Assembly: GCA_028284945.1 (NCBI GenBank)
Contig: JANQQJ010000005.1
Coordinates: forward strand, 62,001 to 126,000
Direction of reading: 5' to 3'
From: Alphaproteobacteria bacterium
GTDB taxonomy: Bacteria > Pseudomonadota > Alphaproteobacteria > SMXS01
Length of the DNA stretch: 64,000 nucleotides
Below, piece after piece: positions 34,234 to 47,098 of this stretch. The position numbers were made by a program, and so were the translations under genes. Numbering within the stretch: the stretch's first letter is position 1; each line of letters opens with the position of its first letter. The notes beneath the pieces were generated by a model, which was not told the DNA's origin, did no database searches, and worked only from the letters and a program-made list of their open reading frames with translations.

Positions 34234-34296
34234 TAGATCATCTTTATCTGTTGAGCTGGAGCGCCGTCCGCTTCCAACTCAACAGATGATGATCTA
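34234..34296. repeat. Second long interrupted palindrome, at the end of the autotransporter gene
   Basis: Arms read TAGATCATC...TCTGTTGAG...CTGGA (34234-34260) and TCCAACTCAACAGATGATGATCTA (34273-34296). The right arm contains the stop codon of the minus-strand autotransporter gene. It mirrors the neighbouring palindrome in design but not in sequence. The pair probably separates convergent transcription. Confidence 0.6.
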
Positions 34297-37200
34297 GAAC
34301 CTGAGCTTGGCGCCACCTGTGATGGCGTGGTCCTGGTAGTCGCCGCCGATTTCGCCGGAATAGTCGAAATAGAGCTGCAGCATGGAGCCAATCATCGCCG
34401 TAATGCCTGCACCAAACAGCGCTGTCGTTTTGCGGGGCACCTCGCCGAACACCGTGAAGTCACTACCAAGGACGCCGTCGAACCGGCCCGAGATCGCCCG
34501 TAGATCATCCTCGAACTCGTGCCCAACACCGACGCTGGCATAAGGTGTGAACCAGCCACCGTTGCCTGAACGGATTGTCTTCGCAATCCGGATCACACCT
34601 TCCAGACGCACCGAGTCGAAGCTGGTCTCATCGATGCTCAGATTGACCGGAGCTGCGCCGGTTTCTGTGAAACCGTCCTGTTCCACCCTGGCATAGGTCA
34701 GGCCCACAGTCGGCGTCACCTGGAAGCCGTCGCCCAGATTGAACTGATAGCCGCCCCGGCCACCGACGTAGCTCAGGTCGCCATTATAGTCGGCGAGCGC
34801 CGACAGATTGACTGTGCCGAAGGTGATGTCACGCGTGCTTTCAATATCCATGCCGCCGACACCACCGGACAGCTCAACAAACCACTCCGGCCCGAAGATG
34901 CTGGCATAGCCGGCAACCTGCCAGCTATCCACATCGCCTTCACCGGCACGTCCGGCAAAGTCCACATCAGTGCTACCAAAGCCGCCGGTGATGCCGATCA
35001 GGATGTTGTTATCGATCAGATAGTCGACGCCGCCATAGCCGGAAACCGTGTCAAATTCATATTCGATGAAGCCGTTATTGCTGTCGACCTCGACAAAGTC
35101 GAAGGTCCCGGCCAGCCAGAAGGAGGCCCGATCGTCGTCGGCGCTGGCGCCGGTCACCGAATTGTCGGTCACATTAATCGCGATGGCATTGTTGTCTCGG
35201 CGGCCGCCGCGTACCTCGTAAGAGCGCAGGCTGGCCTGATGCATCATGGTGCGCGAGATATTGATGCCGACCTCGTCAAAGGCATTGAACCATTCCCCGT
35301 GCAGGTCATCCAGCCCGCCCGGAATGTCGCCCGATGTGCCCAATTGCGCGGCCAGCGCGTGCAGCGGATCGGTGTTCAGGCCGTATTGGGTAACGCCATC
35401 AATGGCCCCCGCAGTTGCGGCCTGATTGACGGTCTGCGCACTGGGTTCAAAGTCCGGGATCGAGGTAATCCGCACCCGGTCGGCCAGATATTCGATGCTG
35501 CCCTTGAAGAGCTGCACCCGGTTGGTCTCGTCCACGTCCACCGTGGCCGGCTTGTCTTCCCGCACAGTTACACCACCATCGTTTGGGCCCCCGTCAAAGG
35601 CGATAGTGTCGAAGGTGCTGTTCACGCCGCCTTCGGCAACCAGCACGTCATAGACCCGGGCCTGGCCGGTATAATCAGCCGTGGCGATCCGCTTGCCATC
35701 GGCATCCAGATCAGGCGTGCCGTCCTGGTCGGCATCAAGGAACTCGGGATCGAGGATCACATCGATAGTGCCACCCAGCACCGCTGTACCATCGCCGGTG
35801 GGCACGGCTTCAACGTCAATACTGTCGGTAACGCCGTCGGGGGTGCCGTCTGGCCCGGTTGTGTCATTGGGAACGCCCAGATCGGTCGTGGCGACACCGG
35901 CCGCGGTGACATTGAGCAGGTCATGACCGCCCGTGTCATTGAGGTCGACCTCGAAACGGCCACCATTATTAGTAATGACCGTGACATCGTTGATGATGGA
36001 GGTTTGCACGCTGTCAAAGACGACACGGCCGATCACATTTAATGTGCCGATCGAGGTGCCCGGTGCGATCACACCTTGCGCGCCGGTGGGTGCCAAAGGA
36101 TCGGCTTCAGCGCCGGAGACGAACAAGCCGCCCAGCACAGAAGGATCGGTGACCACCGTGCCATGACCGCCCAGCCTGGCGCCGGGGAGGACATCAACGG
36201 TCGGTGACACCAGCGTTGCGCCGGTATTTGGACCCAGAACCGGATCCGTCTCCGGATCGTCGTCATCGTCAACCAAAATGAGACCGCCAATATTAAGCGT
36301 GCCACCTTGAATGGTTGTGCCGACCACCCGGTCAAAGACCTGGACCGTCGCATCGGCAATACCGTCGCCATCATTATCGACGTCGACGGGCCGGGTCATC
36401 AGCACACCGTCCACCGTGATCGTGCCGTTGAGGTCGAAGGTGCCGCTGTCGACCTTGTCGAGCAATTCAGCACCAGCAAGAGCACCATCGAAGACACCTT
36501 CGCCGTCGCCGCTCAAGATGAATTGGTCAGTATCTGTATCACCTTCATCCTCCCCCAGATCGATGGCACCGTCCTGGACAGAGCCAGTCTCAAGGTCATA
36601 GGTATCACTGCCCGCGCCGAGGAGAACGTCACCGGTGATCAGCCCTTCCATCCGGTTGGTCACAGATTGGCCGCCCGCAGCCCCCTGGATCGCAACCGGG
36701 GCCATGCCGCCGCCGGTGATGGTGCCACCTGCATTATCGATAAGGATGTCATTCCCCGAGGCATTGATGGCCGCCGCGCTCAAAGACGCAATCGTACCAG
36801 TGTTGTTGACCGTGTTCATGTCGCCAGTAATGTCGACGCCATGGCTGTTGGCCCCACCGGCAGTGCCCCCGGTAATGGTGCCCGAATTGTTCAGCACATT
36901 GCCGTCGCCGGTGATATCGACGCCGTCATCACCGGCAGTGATCGTCAGGTCGGACGTGTTGGTGATGGTGTTGTCGAAGCTATGCGCGACGATGCCATCA
37001 TCCATGGCAATGATGGTGCCGTTATTGGTCACTGTGTTCCCGCCATCGAGGATGAAGAAGTCGCCCTCTCCTTCGATATCGATACCGACGACAATGCCGT
37101 CATCGTCGGATTCGATCAGCCCGTCATTGACGATGGTGTTCCGTGCGACGCCGAAGACACCGTTACCAGCCGCGTTGATCGTGCCGTCTGCGGCGTTGGT

Positions 37201-40200
37201 GGCGGTATTGAAGGATTCAAGCGCGATACCGTCCCGCGCTACATCGATCATGCCATGATTGGTGATGGTATTGGCTTGACCTGCCGCATTGATCCCGTCG
37301 AGGCCGACAATACCAGTCTCTGTGCCGGTGGTATCCACTACACCGCCAGCATCGTTCACCACCGTGTTGTTATTGTCGTCGAGCGAGATCCCATGGCCGT
37401 CGCCGGACTGAATGGTCCCGCCGGTATTGTTGATCGTGTTGCTTGCGCCCGTAACATCGACGCCATGGCCAGTGCCATCACCCTGATCGCCGCCGGTCAA
37501 GGTGCCCGAGTTGTTGAGCACATTGCCTTCGCCGGTGATGTCGACCGCGTCATTGCCTGCGGTGATCGTCAGGTCGGACGTGTTGTTGATCGTATTGTCG
37601 AAGCTGTGTGCGACGATACCGTCGTCCATAGCAATGATGGTGCCGTTATTGGTCACCGTGTTGCCGCCATCGAGGATGAAGAACAGGCCTTCGCCCTCCA
37701 CATCAATACCGACGACAATGCCGTCGTCATCGGATTCGATCAGGCCGTTGTTGACGATGCTGTTCTGTGCGATGCCAAAGATGCCGATATCGGTGGCTGT
37801 AATCTCAGCCCCTGCCGCGTTGGTAATGCTGTTAAAGCCATCGACTGAGATGCCCGTCTGAGCATCAATCGTGCCTTCATTGACGATGCCGGCGCGGCCA
37901 TCCTCGTCGAGGTCCATATTGTTGTTGAACCCGGCCAGAATGCCCACACCATCAGCCGTAATCGCACCGGTGTTGGTGATGTCATTGTTGTCGCCAGCGT
38001 CGATGCCGTCGCCACCTGCGATGATTGTCTCTGTTGAGCTGTTCTTTATGACGTTACCGGAGCCGATATTGATGCCGTCTCCCGCGACATCGATGGTGCC
38101 CTGATTGTCCACGGTGCCGTTGTCACCCAGGTTCAGGCCGTTACCATCCGGATTGTTGACGATGGCGTCGGGCTCAACAAACGTATCAAGCGCATCGTCT
38201 TCAACATTCGTGAAACCGTCCGGGTCGGTGCCGGTGCACAACACGTCAGAGCCGGTCTGAATGCAGCCTTCCAGGAACAGCACACCGATCTGAACGCTGT
38301 TCGGATTGATGATGATCTCAAAATTACCGATCTCATTGACATTATTGACCGTGTCGAACGCGCCTACCACGCCGTTAGCGGCGGTGATGATGGTAAAGAC
38401 ATCGCCGGTTTCGATGTTCTGGTCGACCAGGATGATGTCGAGCGTCCCGTCCAGAACAACCTCACCGCCGACGGCCAGCAAGTCGTTGGTCCCCGTTGGA
38501 CCGAATTCAATCTCCAGCACACCGTCTTGCGACTGCGTGAAGTCATCATTCACCGTCAGCATGCCGATTGACATGCCCGGCGTGACAGTACCGTTGTTCA
38601 CCACACTGCCATCGACTGTCCCCGTGCCGTTCAGCGCGCCGCCACCAGCGATCGTCAATCCGCCCGATGTCACCAACGTACTTTCTGCTGCAAGGGTCAG
38701 CGCACTGGTGCCGTCAATCGCAGACGTCCCGACGTCACTGCCGGTACCTGTTCCGGTTATAGCGGCGCCGTCCTGCACCGACAGGCTCTCGAAATTGATC
38801 GCTTCATCAAGCTCGAAGGTGCCCGTCCCTTGAAGAATAAGAGCGTCGGCGCCGCCGCCACCGTCGATTACGCTGTTGACCGTGCCGGTGGTGACATCGG
38901 TTCTGAACGTATCGGCACCGCCCGCCAGCAGCACATCTCCATTGATGGTGCCAGCATTAAAGACCACCTCATCACCACCGCCGCCGGCAATCGCCGTCGC
39001 AACACCTTCGATGACACCGCCCGCATTGTTGTTGACTGTGTTCGGCCCGAAACCGAGCAACGCGACGCCGACCCCACCCGTGCTGATCAGGTCACCGCTA
39101 TTGTTTATGGTGTTGTCAGTACCAAAAGACTCAATGGCATTGCTTGCGGCACCGCCGGTTGCATTAACCTCGCCGCCGGCGTTGTTGTTGATGGTCGAAT
39201 TGTTGAACAGATCGAAGCCATCATCGGCGACATTGAGCGTGCCGTTGTTATTGAGGGTCGACCCTGCACCGGAGTTCACAAAGAACCCGTCACCGTCAGA
39301 GTTGACCGTGCCATTGTTCGTGGCCGTGACCCCATCGTTGATCACAAAGCCCGCCACACCAAACAGCGCACCGCCGACATTAATCTCGCCATCATTGGTG
39401 GCGGTGCCGCCGCCAGCCTCGTTGAGACTGTTGACGATGATGCCCCTGGACTGAGTCGTGATTGTCGCATCCGCATGGTTGGTGACCGTCGACCCGGAAC
39501 CCGTGCTGATGCCGATATCGCGGGACATGATGGATCCAAAATTGTCCACCATATTGTCCGCGCCGGTTCTGATGCCTGCGTCAGAGGCAAAGTCCTCAGA
39601 ACTTGTCAACGTGACCGTGTCGATGGCGCCGCGGTTGGTAATGGTGTTACCGGTACCAGCCGTCAGGCTTGTCGCGATCCCGGCATCGAATGCCGTGATT
39701 GTGGCACCTGCCTCATTCGTGACCGTGTTATCGCTGCCAACGCCAATACCCGTGCCCTGCTGAGTGGCCGCCGTGCCGAGGATGGAGTTCCGGTCGCCGT
39801 CATTGGGCGCATTGGCCAGGCTGTTGCGGGCGAAAATCTCGCCCCGATTGGTGATGATGTTGTTGCTGGCGGCAAAGATACCGTCGACCTGTGAATCCAC
39901 CGTACCTTCATTGGTGATACCGAAGTTCCCGTCACCGTCCAGGTCCACATTGTTGTTCGACCGGGCATAAATGCCAAAGTCGAGTGCATCGATCCCCCCG
40001 GTATTGAGCACATCATTGCCGTCGCCCAGCGCCATGCCGTCGTCGCCTGCGTTAATGGTCTCGACGCTGGTGTTTTGGACGATGTTGTTGTTGCCTGCCC
40101 GGATGCCGTCGCCATCGACATCAATCGTTCCGGAATTGATGATTCCCTGGCTGGCAAAAGTGGCGTCCTGATTATAGCCGGACCCTGCGATGATGCCGTC

Positions 40201-43200
40201 GCCTTCGCCCATGATGGTTCCGGAACTCAGGATTTCGCTTTCGTCGCCAGCTTGGATACCCGCAGTTGTTGCGGAAATAGACCCCTTGTTGTCGATCAAA
40301 CCCTGGTCGGCCGTCAGGATGCCAACATCGCCAGCGGAGATACTTGAATCGCCGGACGTCCTGATGATGCTGAATGTGCCAGTAACCTCGATGCCGTCAT
40401 CGCCGGCATCGATAAGTCCGAAGTTCTGAATGACCGTTGCATTGCCCCCGGCACGGATCCCGTCTTCGGTCGCTGTGATGTCACCCGCAAAGCCACCGAA
40501 GAAATCCTGACCGTTGGTGATGTCGGCAAGTTCTCCGGCAATGATACCACTGCCGTCGCGGGCAATGATTGTGCCGCTGTTTGTAACGCCCTGGGTGAAA
40601 TCATCATTGTCCAGGTTGGAAAAGACGCCGTCCCCGACGACGATCCCATTTTTGGCAGCGTCAATGTCGCCGCGGTTTAAGACTTCGCCGGCACCATCGT
40701 TCTCGACCCCGTTATTGCCAGCGACAATTGTTGCACCCTCATGGTTGATGACAAGGCTGTCAAAGCCGGCCGTGATCCCGTTGTTACCGGCGGCGATAGA
40801 GCCCTTGTTGATGAAACCAAAGTCGCCGTCCTGGTCAACGTCGGCGACGACCACACCGCCGACCATTGTGCCGTTGCTGAAGTCGCCGCCGTTGATGCCG
40901 TCCAGTCCGGCCTCAATTGTTCCCGTATTCTCTGCTTCACTATTATCCCCGACCAGAATGCCATGACCATCTGCGATGATGGTCTGCGGAGAGGTGTTAT
41001 TTACCGCGTTTTCGTCACCGGTTTCGACACCGTTTCCGGCCGCGTTGATCGTGCCGTCAACCTGGGTGACATTGCCGTCGCCCAGTGTCAGGCCATTGCC
41101 TTCCGGGTTGAGAACCTGCGCGTCGGACAGGACAAGCACGTCAAGGCCTGTATCGACCGTATTGACGAACCCATCACCATCGATGCCTTCGCACAACACG
41201 TCGAGGCCCGTCTGCACGCAAGCGCCGAGCGCGAGGAAGACGATCTCCACCTCCATCTCGTTACCGGTCGTGTTGATCTGAACATCAAGGCCCGCAGGGG
41301 TGCCAACCGTATCGAAGGTGTTATCCAATATCCCGCCATCTGCGATAAGGAAGGTAAAGCTGTCGCCGACCGCGACATCTGTGTCGAACAGAATGATATC
41401 CAGGGTGCCGTCAAGGTCAGCCGTGCCGCTGATATCGATCAGGTCGTTGGAGCCGGTCGGGCCGATTTCCACCATAAGCACGCCGTCCGTGCCTTGTGAA
41501 AAATTACCATCGATCATCAAGGTGCCGATCGATTCGCCAGGCGAGACCATACCCTCGCTGATCAAATCGCTTTCGAGGGTGCCGTTGCCGTCAAGAGTGC
41601 CACCGGCAGAGATCGTCGTACCGCCCGATGCGGTAAGCGTGCTTCCGGCAGCCAGCGTTAGTGCACTTGTCTCGTCGATCGCCAAGCTGCCGATATCAGC
41701 GCTTGTCCCAGTCGCCGTGACGGCGCCGCCGCCAAGAACCGAAACGCCTTCAAAGTTAATGTATTCGGTGCCGATGTCTGTCAGGTCAAAGCTGCCGCTG
41801 CCGGTCAGGCCCAGATCGTCGATATCGTCACCGCCATCGACCACACTGTTCACGACCCCCATGCCAACATCGGTTGTGAAACTGTCGTTGCCCGCGCCCA
41901 ATAGAACGTCGCCATTGATCGTTCCGGCGTTCATCACGGTGTCAGACATTATCCCGCCCTCAATCGCCGTACCGCTGCGGCCTGTAATCGTACCGTGATT
42001 TTCGATCGAGAAACTGGAGGTCCCGAATGCAGAGGCCAGCACGGCCCGCTCCGCGCCCCTGACAAGGCCGCCTGCCTGGTTATTGAGCTCAAGATGGGTA
42101 CCGCCGCTGAGGCCAAATGCGTTCCGGCCTGTCGTGCCTGTACCATCGGGCGCATTGACGCCGCTTTCGATAGTGCCGCTGTTCTCAACCGAGAAGGTTC
42201 TTCCCTCATCGAGCGAAATAAAGATAGCGGAGGCGGGGGCTGATTCCGAATTCGAGATATCAACATCGACGAGGATATCGCCGGAATTGTCGAGCGTACC
42301 TATATGGGGATCGCCATCGTCCAGGAAGCTATCATTGATCCGCAAGGACTCACTGCCGGTCAGGATCATGCCCTGATTGTCGATCATGGTATTGGCATCG
42401 ACTTCGATGCCATCGCCATTGTTGTCGATCTGGGCGATGGTGCCGGTATTCACGATCACACTGTCGCCGCGAATATCAATGATGTTTGAGCCATTGCCGT
42501 TGATCAATCCGTGATTGGTCACGGTCCCGGCGCCATTGATATCGATGGATTCATCGTCGGCGGTGATCACGCCGGTCGCTTCGTTGGTGACGGTTCCGTC
42601 ACCGGAAAAGGCGATGGCGTCGAAACTGTCGAACCGGGTGCCCTCAGGCTGGGTCGCGATGATCGTCCCGGAGTTGGTCACCTGGCCTGATGCCGCGCTG
42701 ATGCCATTGCCTTCGGTCGAGGTGATCATGCCATGATTGATAACCATTGCGTTCTCGCCCAAACGGACCGCGTCGCCGACATCCTCGACATCCATGCTGT
42801 CATTGCCGGCTTGGATGGTGCCCGTCGCCTCGTTGGTCAGGGTGACATTGTCGCCATCCAGAACACCAAACGTCGCGCCGGTGACCGAGCCGGAATTGTT
42901 GATCGTAAACGGACCGACGCCTACAAGACGGATGCCGCTGCCGTCCTCGCTGGTGACGCTTCCGGCATTGTTGATCTGAACATTGTTTCCGCCGCTCGCG
43001 ATGGCAGATGCGTTCGCAAGGCCGCTCACAATGATAGTGCCGCCTTCATTATTATGGACGACGGCATCGGTCCCGACTTGAATACCACCCTCTATAGCTG
43101 TGATCAGACCATTGTTGGTCACGGTCACACCTTCACCATCAAAGTCGCTGATGCCTGAGTTTGAAGCATCAATGGTACCGTTGTTGATGGCGGCCGCGCC

Positions 43201-46035
43201 GCCAGACAAGCCAATGCCCGTCCCGATCAAACCGTCGACGACAATCGAACCATCGTTCGTGACGGATCCTGTTCCGTCTGGTCCGCCGTCGACAAAGACA
43301 CCAAAGGAGTCTGCATTGATGATGCCCGTGGCCGTGTTGACGACCTGGCCGCCAAAGCTTGCATCAATGCCGATGCCATCCGAGCTGATGGTACCAGAAT
43401 TGTCGATCTCGGCACCAACCCCCGCCTCGATGCCTTTCCCGACATTGTTGATCGTGCCCTGATTATCAATCATGGCACCATCACCAAGCTCAAGCCCGAT
43501 AGCCGCTGGATTAACCACCAGCGCGTCGCTTTCGACCAGAACGCTCAGGCCCGTATCGACGGTGTTCGAGAAACCATTGTTATCAATGCCTTCGCACAGC
43601 ACACTTAGTCCAGTCTGCTCGCAGCCGTCCAAAATGAGTGAAATGATTTCGATGTCGATCTGATTGGCGCCGACATTGATGGACACATCAAGGCCATTCG
43701 GTGTCGTGACCGACGCAAAGTCACCGTCCAGCACGCCGCCATCGGCGATCAGGAAGGTGAATGTGTCGCCGGGATTAACAAAGGGGTCGAACAGGATGAT
43801 GTCGAGCGTGCCATCCACGTCGGCCGTGCCGGAAATATCGATCAGGTCATTGGACCCGGTCGGTCCAATCTCAATCTGCAATACGCCGTCTGGTCCCTGG
43901 GTGAAATTCCCATCGACCATCAGGGTGCCAATGGAATTGCCGGGGGCCACCGCCCCGCCTGTCTGGTCAAGATCACCGACGGTGCCGGTGCCGCCCAGTG
44001 TACCGCCGGTTACGTTGGTATTGCCGGTTGAGAAATCACCATTGACCACGGCAGTGCCACTGACCACGTCGAGATCCAGGGTGCCTATGTTGGTTTGGCT
44101 CTCCTCAAGCGTGAAGGTGCCGGTGCCATTAACCTCAATGGTCTGAACACCGCGATATTGAATGCTCTCATCGTTCTGAGTGGATACTTGTGAAACATCG
44201 AAGGTGAAGCCCTGGTCGCCGCCGAGCCGCAAAGTCTGCGCGTTAATTACCGCACCGTTGATCGTGCTGCCGTTGCGGATCTCAACCACGTCATTGCCGA
44301 AACCCATATCGATAGCGATGCCACCTGTCCCGGTGATCGTCCCCGCATTGATAAGAACCTGATCGTCAAAACCACCGAAGGTGTCGGCAAAGACTCCCAT
44401 AAATCCCGTGATCTCACCGCCCGATTGATTGAAGAAACCGCCATCGATCGGTCCATTCAGCTCTACTCCAGCGCCATCGGTGTCACCGTCGCCATCAGTA
44501 TTGCCAGTAATGGTGCCGGCGTTAACGGCCTGGCCGCCTATTACATCACCAAGATCCAGACCGGTATCGCCAGAAATCTGAGCACCGGCCTCATTGGCAA
44601 AATTACCTGTAATTCGAAGAATGCCCAGGCCATCACCGCGGCCACTGTCGTCCGAATCACCCGTAATCGTGCCACGATTGATGACATCGCCATTGATGAA
44701 GGCGAAAAGATTTGCGCCCGAATCCGGCGCCGAGATGGTGCCCGTCGCTTCATTCACGAAGTCGCCATTGAGTGTGCCCGTCCCGATGGTGCCGATGCCG
44801 TCCTGGGTTGAGCTGGTGCTTTCGATACTGCCGGAATTGACGAAACCGCCCGAGATCTCCTGAAAGGTCACAGCCTGGCTGGAATCCATGATGCTGCCGG
44901 TGTTAGTAAAGCCATTGCCGATCACATCAATCGTCACATCGCCATCAAGAGTGCCGTGGTTGGCAAAACTGCCATCGAGCTGATTGATGTCAAACGCGCG
45001 GGCCCCCGCAGCAATCGACCCCTGGTTTTCGACGTCACCCAGAACCGTATCAATGCCGACACCGTCGAAGTCCGCGTCGATAGTGCCGGTTGCCGTGTTG
45101 AGGAAGTTTCCGCCAAGTTCTTCTAGATCCACCCCCGTACCAAAGGTCGCAATGGCGTTGGGATTAGCGATAATATCGCCAGCATTGGTGAAATTGCCAT
45201 CAATGCGCAGCAGCGAGATGCCGTTGTTACCGCCGCTGATCGTTGCACCTTCCTGATTCATGAAATTGCCGATGACAGTACCGTGATCGACAAAGCCAGA
45301 GGTGCCGCCACCCTGCGTAAACTGACTCAGCGTATCGCTGATGCCATCGCCGAGGCCGTCATTGTTGGTATCGCCGATGATATCGCCACTATTGATGAAA
45401 TCACCGCCAACACCGACGGAAATATCGCCCGGGAACTCCGTGGAGATTTGTATCGCGTTATTGCCGCCTGAAATGGACCCGGTATTGATGAAGTCGCCGG
45501 TGATCACGATCTCGGACCCATTGGATGTCTTGCCTACCCAGACACCGGTGATGCCGCCGGAAATCATGCCGTTGACGATCAGGTCTCCATCGACGGCGCC
45601 CGCAAGACGCAGAGCATTGCTGATTTCGCCGGTGTCTTGGATGGTCCCGTTGATCAGAACATCGCCGAGGACACTGCCGTCAGGTAGGGTGCCCTCAGGC
45701 AACGGAGGAACAGGAAATACCGGATCGCCTATCTGGATAACGCCGCCAACATTGCCTCTATCGGGATCGTCCTGATCATTGACCAAAACATCTGCATTGA
45801 TCGTCAGGCTTTGAATGGTGTCATCGGTCACGAAACCGTCGGGATCGTCGACCACATCAGGGGATTCGCCGCAGACTATGTTTGCAGGCGACGCTGCGTC
45901 AGCAGCGCATTGCGCCAATGCTTCTTCGCCGGCAAACACCGCCGCGGCCCAGATGGCGGCGGTCAGAAGAACTGCCCCTGTATTGGCCTTGCGATCTACG
46001 CGCGGAAATGACGTCGTGATAAACCCTTGAGGCAT
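34294..46035 (-). CDS. Giant autotransporter adhesin with four serial beta-helix passenger modules
   Basis: About 3,913 residues: long signal peptide (about 1-40, cleavage near ALA|Q), a huge passenger, and a C-terminal autotransporter beta-barrel (about 3,600-3,913, final residues GAKLRF with terminal aromatic Phe). The passenger is built of parallel beta-helix turns of the type NNGTI / NTGTI / VNHG spaced about 18-25 residues. Four modules are visible, opening at Cys43, Cys805, Cys1606 and Cys2591; modules 2-4 start with (C)xQTGxDVLC-GxDxDGF. Modules 1-3 close with SIGTLxVxGxFxQ...PTGSNDLIDISGTADxDGTLDIILFD. The start at 46035 is chosen because AGGGAGGGGG precedes it; an in-frame ATG at 46053 is six codons further upstream. 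A surface adhesin or biofilm role is inferred. Confidence 0.93.
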   Translation of the reverse strand: MPQGFITTSFPRVDRKANTGAVLLTAAIWAAAVFAGEEALAQCAADAASPANIVCGESPDVVDDPDGFVTDDTIQSLTINADVLVNDQDDPDRGNVGGVIQIGDPVFPVPPLPEGTLPDGSVLGDVLINGTIQDTGEISNALRLAGAVDGDLIVNGMISGGITGVWVGKTSNGSEIVITGDFINTGSISGGNNAIQISTEFPGDISVGVGGDFINSGDIIGDTNNDGLGDGISDTLSQFTQGGGTSGFVDHGTVIGNFMNQEGATISGGNNGISLLRIDGNFTNAGDIIANPNAIATFGTGVDLEELGGNFLNTATGTIDADFDGVGIDTVLGDVENQGSIAAGARAFDINQLDGSFANHGTLDGDVTIDVIGNGFTNTGSIMDSSQAVTFQEISGGFVNSGSIESTSSTQDGIGTIGTGTLNGDFVNEATGTISAPDSGANLFAFINGDVINRGTITGDSDDSGRGDGLGILRITGNFANEAGAQISGDTGLDLGDVIGGQAVNAGTITGNTDGDGDTDGAGVELNGPIDGGFFNQSGGEITGFMGVFADTFGGFDDQVLINAGTITGTGGIAIDMGFGNDVVEIRNGSTINGAVINAQTLRLGGDQGFTFDVSQVSTQNDESIQYRGVQTIEVNGTGTFTLEESQTNIGTLDLDVVSGTAVVNGDFSTGNTNVTGGTLGGTGTVGDLDQTGGAVAPGNSIGTLMVDGNFTQGPDGVLQIEIGPTGSNDLIDISGTADVDGTLDIILFDPFVNPGDTFTFLIADGGVLDGDFASVTTPNGLDVSINVGANQIDIEIISLILDGCEQTGLSVLCEGIDNNGFSNTVDTGLSVLVESDALVVNPAAIGLELGDGAMIDNQGTINNVGKGIEAGVGAEIDNSGTISSDGIGIDASFGGQVVNTATGIINADSFGVFVDGGPDGTGSVTNDGSIVVDGLIGTGIGLSGGAAAINNGTIDASNSGISDFDGEGVTVTNNGLITAIEGGIQVGTDAVVHNNEGGTIIVSGLANASAIASGGNNVQINNAGSVTSEDGSGIRLVGVGPFTINNSGSVTGATFGVLDGDNVTLTNEATGTIQAGNDSMDVEDVGDAVRLGENAMVINHGMITSTEGNGISAASGQVTNSGTIIATQPEGTRFDSFDAIAFSGDGTVTNEATGVITADDESIDINGAGTVTNHGLINGNGSNIIDIRGDSVIVNTGTIAQIDNNGDGIEVDANTMIDNQGMILTGSESLRINDSFLDDGDPHIGTLDNSGDILVDVDISNSESAPASAIFISLDEGRTFSVENSGTIESGVNAPDGTGTTGRNAFGLSGGTHLELNNQAGGLVRGAERAVLASAFGTSSFSIENHGTITGRSGTAIEGGIMSDTVMNAGTINGDVLLGAGNDSFTTDVGMGVVNSVVDGGDDIDDLGLTGSGSFDLTDIGTEYINFEGVSVLGGGAVTATGTSADIGSLAIDETSALTLAAGSTLTASGGTTISAGGTLDGNGTLESDLISEGMVSPGESIGTLMIDGNFSQGTDGVLMVEIGPTGSNDLIDISGTADLDGTLDIILFDTDVAVGDSFTFLIADGGILDNTFDTVGTPAGLDVQINTTGNEMEVEIVFLALGACVQTGLDVLCEGIDGDGFVNTVDTGLDVLVLSDAQVLNPEGNGLTLGDGNVTQVDGTINAAGNGVETGDENAVNNTSPQTIIADGHGILVGDNSEAENTGTIEAGLDGINGGDFSNGTMVGGVVVADVDQDGDFGFINKGSIAAGNNGITAGFDSLVINHEGATIVAGNNGVENDGAGEVLNRGDIDAAKNGIVVGDGVFSNLDNDDFTQGVTNSGTIIARDGSGIIAGELADITNGQDFFGGFAGDITATEDGIRAGGNATVIQNFGLIDAGDDGIEVTGTFSIIRTSGDSSISAGDVGILTADQGLIDNKGSISATTAGIQAGDESEILSSGTIMGEGDGIIAGSGYNQDATFASQGIINSGTIDVDGDGIRAGNNNIVQNTSVETINAGDDGMALGDGNDVLNTGGIDALDFGIYARSNNNVDLDGDGNFGITNEGTVDSQVDGIFAASNNIITNRGEIFARNSLANAPNDGDRNSILGTAATQQGTGIGVGSDNTVTNEAGATITAFDAGIATSLTAGTGNTITNRGAIDTVTLTSSEDFASDAGIRTGADNMVDNFGSIMSRDIGISTGSGSTVTNHADATITTQSRGIIVNSLNEAGGGTATNDGEINVGGALFGVAGFVINDGVTATNNGTVNSDGDGFFVNSGAGSTLNNNGTLNVADDGFDLFNNSTINNNAGGEVNATGGAASNAIESFGTDNTINNSGDLISTGGVGVALLGFGPNTVNNNAGGVIEGVATAIAGGGGDEVVFNAGTINGDVLLAGGADTFRTDVTTGTVNSVIDGGGGADALILQGTGTFELDEAINFESLSVQDGAAITGTGTGSDVGTSAIDGTSALTLAAESTLVTSGGLTIAGGGALNGTGTVDGSVVNNGTVTPGMSIGMLTVNDDFTQSQDGVLEIEFGPTGTNDLLAVGGEVVLDGTLDIILVDQNIETGDVFTIITAANGVVGAFDTVNNVNEIGNFEIIINPNSVQIGVLFLEGCIQTGSDVLCTGTDPDGFTNVEDDALDTFVEPDAIVNNPDGNGLNLGDNGTVDNQGTIDVAGDGINIGSGNVIKNSSTETIIAGGDGIDAGDNNDITNTGAITADGVGILAGFNNNMDLDEDGRAGIVNEGTIDAQTGISVDGFNSITNAAGAEITATDIGIFGIAQNSIVNNGLIESDDDGIVVGIDVEGEGLFFILDGGNTVTNNGTIIAMDDGIVAHSFDNTINNTSDLTITAGNDAVDITGEGNVLNNSGTLTGGDQGDGTGHGVDVTGASNTINNTGGTIQSGDGHGISLDDNNNTVVNDAGGVVDTTGTETGIVGLDGINAAGQANTITNHGMIDVARDGIALESFNTATNAADGTINAAGNGVFGVARNTIVNDGLIESDDDGIVVGIDIEGEGDFFILDGGNTVTNNGTIIAMDDGIVAHSFDNTITNTSDLTITAGDDGVDITGDGNVLNNSGTITGGTAGGANSHGVDITGDMNTVNNTGTIASLSAAAINASGNDILIDNAGGTITGGGMAPVAIQGAAGGQSVTNRMEGLITGDVLLGAGSDTYDLETGSVQDGAIDLGEDEGDTDTDQFILSGDGEGVFDGALAGAELLDKVDSGTFDLNGTITVDGVLMTRPVDVDNDGDGIADATVQVFDRVVGTTIQGGTLNIGGLILVDDDDDPETDPVLGPNTGATLVSPTVDVLPGARLGGHGTVVTDPSVLGGLFVSGAEADPLAPTGAQGVIAPGTSIGTLNVIGRVVFDSVQTSIINDVTVITNNGGRFEVDLNDTGGHDLLNVTAAGVATTDLGVPNDTTGPDGTPDGVTDSIDVEAVPTGDGTAVLGGTIDVILDPEFLDADQDGTPDLDADGKRIATADYTGQARVYDVLVAEGGVNSTFDTIAFDGGPNDGGVTVREDKPATVDVDETNRVQLFKGSIEYLADRVRITSIPDFEPSAQTVNQAATAGAIDGVTQYGLNTDPLHALAAQLGTSGDIPGGLDDLHGEWFNAFDEVGINISRTMMHQASLRSYEVRGGRRDNNAIAINVTDNSVTGASADDDRASFWLAGTFDFVEVDSNNGFIEYEFDTVSGYGGVDYLIDNNILIGITGGFGSTDVDFAGRAGEGDVDSWQVAGYASIFGPEWFVELSGGVGGMDIESTRDITFGTVNLSALADYNGDLSYVGGRGGYQFNLGDGFQVTPTVGLTYARVEQDGFTETGAAPVNLSIDETSFDSVRLEGVIRIAKTIRSGNGGWFTPYASVGVGHEFEDDLRAISGRFDGVLGSDFTVFGEVPRKTTALFGAGITAMIGSMLQLYFDYSGEIGGDYQDHAITGGAKLRF
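36879..37790 (-). repeat. Segmental duplication inside autotransporter module 4
   Basis: Two segments (about 37494-37790 and 36879-37171) encode nearly the same approximately 100 residues: LIESDDDGIVVGIDxEGE, FFILDGGNTVTNNGTIIAMD, DGIVAHSFDNTI and NTSDLTITAG. The period is about 620 bp. Differences are mostly synonymous or conservative, so the copies have diverged while kept functional. Confidence 0.8.
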
Positions 46036-46037
46036 GG

Positions 46038-46047
46038 CCCCCTCCCT
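46038..46047 (-). promoter_or_regulatory. Strong ribosome binding site of the autotransporter gene
   Basis: AGGGAGGGGG on the minus strand, two bases before the ATG at 46035 with its core at ordinary spacing. It lies after the alternative ATG at 46053, so it decides for the downstream start (MPQGFITT). Confidence 0.75.
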
Positions 46048-46238
46048 GATCATCTTTCGGAGCAGTTCGGCCCCGTCAAACTATGCAGCGGCACTGAATC
46101 GAGTCGCCGGCGCGATCACCTCTGATAGAGCACCTACAATACGCGTGCCCCATGCCCCTCACGCCTTCATGACCGGCATCTAATGGTGCCGCTTTAAGCG
46201 TTAGTATGACCCACAAGCGGGCGGAAAAAACAGAAAAA

Positions 46239-46253
46239 CTGTCAAAATGGCAG
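46239..46253. promoter_or_regulatory. Candidate operator palindrome
   Basis: CTGTCA-AAA-TGGCAG, a dyad with one mismatch, flanked by A/T-rich runs. On the minus strand it contains TTGACA, a good match to a -35 hexamer, although I see no clear -10 at 16-18 bp. Binding by the adjacent TetR protein is inference. Confidence 0.35.
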
Positions 46254-46330
46254 AGTTTTTTCTTTTTGAAAAAAAATGTTTCAGGCTGACAGCTTTTCCG
46301 AACCAAGCCTATCGCCAGCTTATTGCCCGC

Positions 46331-46370
46331 TAGGCCTGAACATTTTTCCTTATTGAAAAACACAGGCCTA
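46331..46370. promoter_or_regulatory. Dyad TAGGCCTG...CAGGCCTA upstream of the TetR gene
   Basis: Perfect 8-bp arms (46331-46338 and 46363-46370) with an inner TTTTTC / GAAAAA pairing around CTTATT. It forms a 40-nt imperfect hairpin. It could be a regulator-binding site, or an RNA hairpin in the leader of either gene. Confidence 0.4.
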
Positions 46371-46419
46371 AAAGGTCGTTCAGGAGGTACCAACAAGATC
46401 TGCCTGTAGGGCCGATGCG

Positions 46420-46447
46420 TTGTTTCAACGTCCGTTTGCGCTATAAG
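46420..46447 (+). promoter_or_regulatory. Possible promoter of the TetR gene
   Basis: TTGTTT (46420-46425), 16 bp, TATAAG (46442-46447). This is a partial sigma-70 match placed about 40 bp before the TTG start codon. Weak evidence by itself. Confidence 0.3.
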
Positions 46448-46486
46448 ACTTTCTGAGAGAACTAAGAAACGGGATCCGGCCCGAAA

Positions 46487-47098
46487 TTGGTTAAAAAGAT
46501 CGCCGAGATACGCAGGCCTGAAATCATCCAGGCCCTTTATCGCGCCATTCAGGGCGAAGGAATCAGCCTGCCCGGCAACGATCAGATCGCCAAACATGGC
46601 GATATGTCGCGCCAGCTGATCCGGCATTACTTCACAGATCCCGAGGACATGGCTGTCGCGCTATGCGATTTCCTCGCCGACACATACCGCGACTGTTTGA
46701 TGAAAGGCATTATCGCCGCCGACGATAGCCGCCGGCTTAGCGTGTTTCTGGATTTCTACTTCAATTTTCTGGACGGGCTGCCCAAGCCCGCCGACGACGC
46801 AGTCTATGACGCGCTGTTCGCGCTGGCCGGCTCCAGCGAGCGTGTGCGCGAGAACCTTCATGACCAGTACACATTGCTGCAAATGACTCTGGCGCATGAA
46901 ATCCAGATTAGCTATCCGGACTTGCCGCAGAATGGCTGTCGCGAGCTGGGCTATCTGGTCGTGACCAACATGTATGGCCACTGGAAGATGGTCGCGACCC
47001 TGGGGTTCAGTACGGACTATAACCGGGTCGCGCGGCAAGCCCTGGACCGGCTGATCGAGTCCTATGTGGCCAATTATGACGATCCTGATGCAATTTAG
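46487..47098 (+). CDS. TetR-type transcriptional regulator
   Basis: A 203-residue protein whose N-terminus is a TetR helix-turn-helix (about 8-55: IIQALYRAIQGEGISLPG, NDQIAKHGDMSRQLIRHYF, TDPEDMAVAL), with a helical C-terminal ligand or dimerisation part. The start is TTG at 46487; the frame opens at 46466 and no ATG or GTG is available before the HTH. Divergent from the giant autotransporter gene, so it is the obvious candidate regulator of that gene. The ligand is unknown. Confidence 0.82.
   Translation: MVKKIAEIRRPEIIQALYRAIQGEGISLPGNDQIAKHGDMSRQLIRHYFTDPEDMAVALCDFLADTYRDCLMKGIIAADDSRRLSVFLDFYFNFLDGLPKPADDAVYDALFALAGSSERVRENLHDQYTLLQMTLAHEIQISYPDLPQNGCRELGYLVVTNMYGHWKMVATLGFSTDYNRVARQALDRLIESYVANYDDPDAI

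What the first reader, a model, noticed from the sequence alone, without database searches (positions are those of the whole stretch)
34294..46035. Giant autotransporter made of four serial passenger modules before one barrel
A single 11.7-kb gene takes up 18% of the window. Modules 1-3 each end with the same motif block (SIGTL...PTGSNDLIDISGTADxDGTLDIIL) that normally closes an autotransporter passenger next to its barrel, yet only the last module is followed by a barrel. The protein looks like a passenger multiplied by tandem duplication, a way to lengthen a surface fibre without changing secretion.
Basis: partly seen in the sequence, partly recalled or inferred. Interest (0 to 1): 0.62.

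Follow-up and report, generated by a model that had tools for sequence, protein, structure and literature searches.

The report
Giant autotransporter with four capped modules
One bacterial gene encodes a very large surface protein made of four separately capped rod segments in a row but only one membrane pore to export them; serial repetition of this kind is already known, and what is unusual here is that each segment begins with its own cysteine pair and ends with its own folding-starter block.

Summary
Window 34294-46053 (-) is one unbroken 3919-codon frame: signal peptide, four passenger modules, one PF03797 barrel. Assembly error is unlikely: the longest exact repeat is 26 bp and the gene lies mid-contig. 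A relative in another genus has a two-module version. 'Passenger multiplied by tandem duplication' is only partly supported: the junctions are paralogous, but the module bodies are not simple copies. Serial autochaperones before one barrel are common (17 of 80 relatives sampled, up to seven), and passenger replication is published (BigE). The cysteine-pair re-start is rare: this gene, the two-module relative and one Sphingomonas protein. Verdict: real, a modest variant of a known kind.

The parts
34294..46053 (-). whole gene, 3919 aa (alternative start Met7 at 46035)
   Evidence: unbroken frame, mid-contig in a 166-kb contig
45910..46053 (-). signal peptide, aa 1-48, extended type (inferred from the sequence: hydrophobic stretch, then ALAQ before Cys49)
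   Evidence: sequence inspection; no predictor was available
43630..45909 (-). module 1 (aa 49-808): Cys pair 49/61, distinct beta-repeat body, autochaperone 1
41227..43629 (-). module 2 (aa 809-1609): Cys pair 811/820, beta-helix body, autochaperone 2
38272..41226 (-). module 3 (aa 1610-2594): Cys pair 1612/1621, beta-helix body, autochaperone 3
35554..38271 (-). module 4 (aa 2595-3500): Cys pair 2597/2606, beta-repeat body, ends in the interrupted autochaperone 4
43645..44010 (-). autochaperone block 1 (aa 682-803)
   Evidence: profile 125 bits
41242..41607 (-). autochaperone block 2 (aa 1483-1604)
   Evidence: profile 115 bits; AF2 pLDDT 90-98 and match to the IcsA autochaperone 3ml3, Z 11.0, 127 residues at 2.5 A
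38281..38646 (-). autochaperone block 3 (aa 2470-2591)
   Evidence: profile 115 bits
35455..36183 (-). autochaperone block 4, barrel-side, interrupted by Asp/Gly-rich inserts (about aa 3291-3533)
   Evidence: profile recognises it in collinear pieces; model residues 6-345 match Ssp 419-640, Z 17.6
45871..45909 (-). N-cap Cys pair of module 1 (C49, C61)
43594..43623 (-). re-start Cys pair of module 2 (C811, C820)
41191..41220 (-). re-start Cys pair of module 3 (C1612, C1621), in the low-confidence linker of the model
38236..38265 (-). re-start Cys pair of module 4 (C2597, C2606)
37421..37789 (-). first copy of a more recent duplication inside module 4 (82% DNA identity)
36797..37165 (-). second copy of the same duplication, 624 bp on
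35185..35430 (-). helical linker before and through the barrel (aa 3542-3623)
   Evidence: AF2 helices at model 353-434
34297..35127 (-). 12-stranded translocator barrel PF03797, ends in Phe3919 (aa 3643-3919)
   Evidence: model matches EstA Z 35.0, NalP Z 32.0, EspP Z 29.7

Best explanation
This is a classical (type Va) autotransporter whose passenger is a row of four passenger units served by one barrel. Each unit has a short Cys-pair start, a beta-helix body and a C-terminal autochaperone cap. Shown by computation: one frame, four Cys-pair starts, three internal autochaperones plus one interrupted terminal one, one 12-stranded barrel, autochaperone fold at the modelled junction, and a predicted break there between consecutive beta-helices. 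Inferred: after Sec export the barrel inserts and the passenger is threaded out from its C-terminal end. Module 4 folds from its barrel-side autochaperone. Because each unit ends at a capped start, stacking cannot simply continue into the next unit, so the next autochaperone to emerge starts folding again, and so on outwards. The exposed product would be a jointed chain of four beta-helical rods, most likely an adhesin or cell-surface structure. Inferred history: the junction block (autochaperone plus next start) was duplicated within the gene long ago and is conserved as protein, while the bodies diverge or are exchanged, so module number can change (two in the relative, four here).
For: Single frame and barrel. 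Junction blocks paralogous, 45-58% identity over 260 aa. Exactly eight cysteines, as one pair at each module start, matching the Cys pair just after the signal peptide here and in several related autotransporters. AF2 of junction 2: pLDDT 90-98 over the autochaperone, about 41 over the Cys-pair linker, then a second beta-helix; pTM 0.63. Structural matches split at the linker: residues 1-231 to passenger C-termini (Ssp Z 20.9, IcsA 17.6, Ag43 15.6, EspP 14.6, IcsA autochaperone 11.0), residues 230-421 to other beta-helix proteins. Terminal model: 12-stranded barrel, Z 35 to EstA, and an autochaperone-like region matching Ssp. Two-module relative (G008, 1880 aa): 50.6% identity over 996 columns to module 4 plus barrel, and its single junction groups with J3 (support 0.90). 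Separate two-unit case in Sphingomonas sp. LaA6.9. Literature: the autochaperone promotes folding of the whole passenger and folding is proposed to run C to N (PMC8151025, PMC5895577); short Cys loops should not interfere with secretion (PMC8151025).
Against: The linker's low confidence may reflect the shallow alignment there (four rows cover it), not real flexibility. Only one of the three internal junctions was modelled. No expression, secretion or folding data. A 3,400-residue passenger might be processed after export. Bodies of different modules are not clearly copies of each other. The G008 gene is not in a syntenic position, so orthology rests on sequence alone.
Confidence: 0.7

Rival explanations
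1. One continuous long fibre: the internal autochaperone blocks are ordinary rungs and simply lengthen one beta-helix.
For: The modules are beta-repeat sequence throughout and the internal blocks sit in line.
Against: The predicted junction has a confidence gap exactly at the Cys-pair linker, and the two sides match different structures. [quoted passage not shown] A mature-N-terminus-like start follows each block.
Confidence: 0.17
2. Fusion or passenger capture: units came from different autotransporter genes joined through recombination at conserved cap blocks (loss of barrels), rather than by tandem duplication of one passenger.
For: Module 1's body differs from the others; module 3 and 4 bodies are as close to a passenger of another genome's autotransporter as to each other.
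Against: J1 and J2 are sister sequences and all junctions group in one small clade with the two-module relative's junction, so at least part of the series arose by internal duplication. No barrel remnants lie between modules. The two histories can be combined.
Confidence: 0.3
3. Assembly artefact joining separate genes.
For: The genome is in 44 contigs, so presumably short reads.
Against: The longest exact repeat in the gene is 26 bp; the gene lies inside a 166-kb contig; internal modules have no signal peptide or barrel; an independent genome has the same junction type inside its own contig.
Confidence: 0.02

Closest known systems
BigE (10,429 aa, autotransporter with beta-proteobacterial relatives; Celik et al. 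2012, PMC3419190)
   Same: Passenger segment replicated (eight-fold) before a single barrel.
   Different: Its repeated segment is about 309 aa (220-528), with additional 69-aa repeats; a Cys-pair start per unit and an autochaperone per unit are not described in the passages read. Its sequence was not compared here.
Serial-autochaperone autotransporters with a W-rich re-start (e.g. L109 Sphingomonas kyeonggiensis, three blocks; also L044 Paraburkholderia sejongensis, seven blocks, with another re-start)
   Same: Several autochaperone blocks, one terminal barrel.
   Different: Most internal blocks are followed by a 'FWDG...GTW...TNWT' motif, not by a Cys pair, and they cluster apart from terminal blocks (6 label changes on the tree against 33 in shuffles).
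G008 1880-aa protein (L145:12819-18458 -), related genus
   Same: Same Cys-pair start, same junction (grouping with J3), same pre-barrel region and barrel.
   Different: Two modules instead of four; different locus.
Sphingomonas sp. LaA6.9 1673-aa protein (L054:1120-6138 +)
   Same: Two passenger units, each with a Cys-pair start and an autochaperone, then one barrel.
   Different: Only 27% identical at the junction; its barrel linker is a Thr-Pro repeat.
IcsA, EspP, Ag43, Ssp
   Same: Autochaperone fold at the passenger C-terminus; classical barrel.
   Different: One autochaperone each, next to the barrel (established knowledge; PMC5767081).

Membership tests
Type Va classical autotransporter | C-terminal 12-stranded PF03797 barrel | tested here: met
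   (187 bits, full profile); AF2 model matches EstA Z 35.0, NalP Z 32.0
Type Va classical autotransporter | beta-helical passenger N-terminal to the barrel | tested here: met
   junction 2 model and its structural matches; most of the module bodies were not modelled
Type Va classical autotransporter | helix through the barrel | tested here: met
   helices at model residues 353-434 before the first barrel strand
Type Va classical autotransporter | Sec signal peptide | tested here: inconclusive
   typical sequence ending in ALAQ before Cys49; no predictor was run
Type Va classical autotransporter | secretion of the passenger by its own barrel | not testable with these tools
   needs expression
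Autochaperone domain | fold and sequence of the conserved passenger C-terminal region | tested here: met
   internal block 2: 3ml3 Z 11.0 over 127 residues; same sequence family as the barrel-adjacent blocks of relatives
Autochaperone domain | needed for folding of the passenger | not testable with these tools
   needs deletion mutants
Replicated-passenger autotransporter (BigE-like) | passenger segment replicated before one barrel | tested here: met
   three paralogous junctions, four starts, one barrel; the bodies are not clear copies
Replicated-passenger autotransporter (BigE-like) | sequence relationship to BigE itself | not tested
   BigE sequence not fetched
EprS serine protease (NF051851) | whole-protein score over the curated cut-off | tested here: not met
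   88 bits against a cut-off of 1700; only the cap and barrel stretches match

The most novel reading that the evidence does not exclude
Each internal autochaperone is an active relay: it restarts folding of the next beta-helix outside the cell after the previous one has been closed by its Cys-pair cap. One barrel could then export a chain of independent, jointed rods whose number is set by recombination at the conserved cap blocks.
Probability: 0.4. Interest if true: 0.55.

Novelty: new variant of a known kind. Interest (0 to 1): 0.33.

Why it matters
Autochaperones are studied next to the barrel, as the single nucleus for C-to-N folding. Natural proteins with several of them in series, with and without a new N-cap in between, offer a direct test of whether one nucleus is enough for a very long passenger or whether folding must be restarted. 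The two-module and four-module pair of relatives gives natural length variants. Otherwise this is one more very large autotransporter.

Tried and rejected
Whole-protein Pfam scan found no barrel or passenger family; the barrel appears only when the C-terminus is scanned alone, presumably because of composition filters, so a missing Pfam hit here means little. BLASTP of the whole protein against itself printed nothing useful; windowed comparison worked. Looked for conserved gene order around the G008 relative: none. Considered a second gene directly upstream (46076-46627 -): no Pfam match and it spans an AT-rich intergenic stretch, so probably spurious. No sigma-70-like promoter site found. Searched 385 genomes of the class and 398 of the phylum with the junction alignment: no other convincing full-length autochaperone-plus-Cys-start junction; three loci whose matches ran past the block (G653, G546, G129) gave no frame with more than one block. 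This profile is biased to close relatives, so more distant cases may be missed. The plasmid search gave only partial or weak matches, and the two fetched regions were not analysed further. The 21% rate of serial autochaperones comes from loci picked by similarity to this protein's blocks, so it is not a general rate.

Full report
Observation. The window holds one unbroken frame, 34294-46053 on the minus strand, 3919 aa. It ends in a single PF03797 barrel at aa 3645-3899. Windowed self-comparison shows three long-range repeats centred on aa 650-900, 1450-1700 and 2437-2690, with E-values down to 1e-42 under composition correction. The longest exact repeat in the gene is 26 bp, and the gene is well inside a 166-kb contig, which makes a short-read assembly error very unlikely.

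What the junction is. The first part of the junction is an autochaperone block. A profile built from it finds the barrel-adjacent block of other autotransporters. An AlphaFold2 model of junction 2 (aa 1380-1800, 59 rows) has pLDDT 90-98 over the block. It aligns with the C-terminal passenger ends of Ssp (Z 20.9, 199 residues, 3.0 A), IcsA (Z 17.6), Ag43 (Z 15.6) and EspP (Z 14.6), and with the IcsA autochaperone itself (3ml3, Z 11.0, 127 residues, 2.5 A). The second part is a fresh start, 'C-x-Q-T-G-x-x-V-L-C-x-G-x-D-x-[DN]-G-F', with a Cys pair. The protein has exactly eight cysteines in 3919 residues, in four pairs, one at each module start: 49/61, 811/820, 1612/1621 and 2597/2606. The first pair directly follows the apparent signal peptide, and several related alphaproteobacterial autotransporters show a comparable 'C...TVTC[ST]G' start there. 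Each unit therefore looks like a complete passenger from mature N-terminus to autochaperone.

The fourth unit. The profile still recognises it in collinear pieces, and a model of aa 3190-3919 places an autochaperone-like region (matching Ssp 419-640, Z 17.6), helices, and a 12-stranded barrel (EstA Z 35.0, NalP Z 32.0) in order.

Is it tandem duplication? In a tree of 143 autochaperone blocks, J1 and J2 are sisters (0.95), J3 pairs with the single junction of a relative (0.90), and these four fall in one small clade with the block of another autotransporter family of this genome and its relatives (0.86). So internal duplication happened at least once. Between J1 and J2 amino acids are 72% identical but third codon positions only 47%, so it is old and the protein sequence is held by selection. 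The bodies tell a different story. Module 1's body has no specific partner. Module 3 and 4 bodies match an autotransporter of related genome G002 as well as or better than each other. Conserved caps with diverging or exchanged bodies describe this better than a multiplied passenger. Within module 4 there is one more recent 369-bp duplication at 82% DNA identity.

Relatives. No other genome of the same genus was listed. In the same family, G008 carries a 1880-aa protein with two modules, whose second module and barrel are 50.6% identical to module 4 and barrel of the window protein over 996 columns. The neighbourhoods differ. A wider sample of 80 autotransporters with this block shows 17 with more than one block, up to seven. 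Of 24 internal blocks, only one (Sphingomonas sp. LaA6.9) is followed by a Cys pair and 17 have a W-rich motif. Searches of 385 genomes of the class and 398 of the phylum found no further convincing full junction. The sample was chosen by similarity, so rates are not general.

Mechanism. Established: type Va passengers are threaded C-terminus first; the autochaperone promotes folding, and folding is proposed to run C to N and help drive export (PMC5895577; PMC8151025). Cysteines in such passengers are few and close together, compatible with export (PMC8151025). Inferred here: because each unit has its own start and its own autochaperone, folding must begin anew at each unit as it emerges, giving a jointed chain of four rods. 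The model supports a break at the junction, with pLDDT about 41 over the Cys-pair linker and different structural partners on the two sides, but shallow alignment coverage of the linker could also cause this.

Known or new. Replication of a passenger segment before one barrel was reported for BigE (10,429 aa, eight-fold; PMC3419190). The autochaperone survey by Rojas-Lopez et al. (PMC5767081) showed no mention of several copies per protein in the passages searched. The present protein is a variant of a known kind, distinguished by complete capped units. It is not EprS, whose NCBIfam cut-off it misses by far.

Noticed in passing
L009:496-3288 (+) (own genome, contig C37); L144:536-3328 (-) in relative G003: Animal haem peroxidase domain (PF03098, E 1e-129) fused to an autotransporter barrel (PF03797): a possible surface-displayed peroxidase, conserved in another genus of the family.
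   Followed up: partly
L006 (own genome, contig C31), 5652-aa frame; L008 (contig C32), 4287-aa frame: Two further giant autotransporters in the same genome. The first has very many 'GDDN'-like repeats and Asp-rich inserts before the barrel, and proteins with a similar C-terminus (3527-4061 aa) occur in G002, G004 and G007.
   Followed up: partly
window 36797-37165 and 37421-37789 (-): 369-bp duplication (82% identical, 624 bp apart) inside module 4, more recent than the junction duplications.
   Followed up: partly
window 35455-36183 (-): Barrel-side autochaperone interrupted by Asp/Gly-rich 'GPDGTPDG' and 'DADQDGTPDLDADG' inserts that look like calcium-binding loops; longer ones occur before the barrel of the 5652-aa protein.
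   Followed up: no
G400:C17, around 75386-75916: Open frame of 13,412 aa with an autochaperone block in a genome of the same phylum, longer than BigE if real.
   Followed up: no
L044:2-8578 (+): Paraburkholderia sejongensis frame with seven autochaperone blocks at about 366-aa spacing, cut by the locus end.
   Followed up: no
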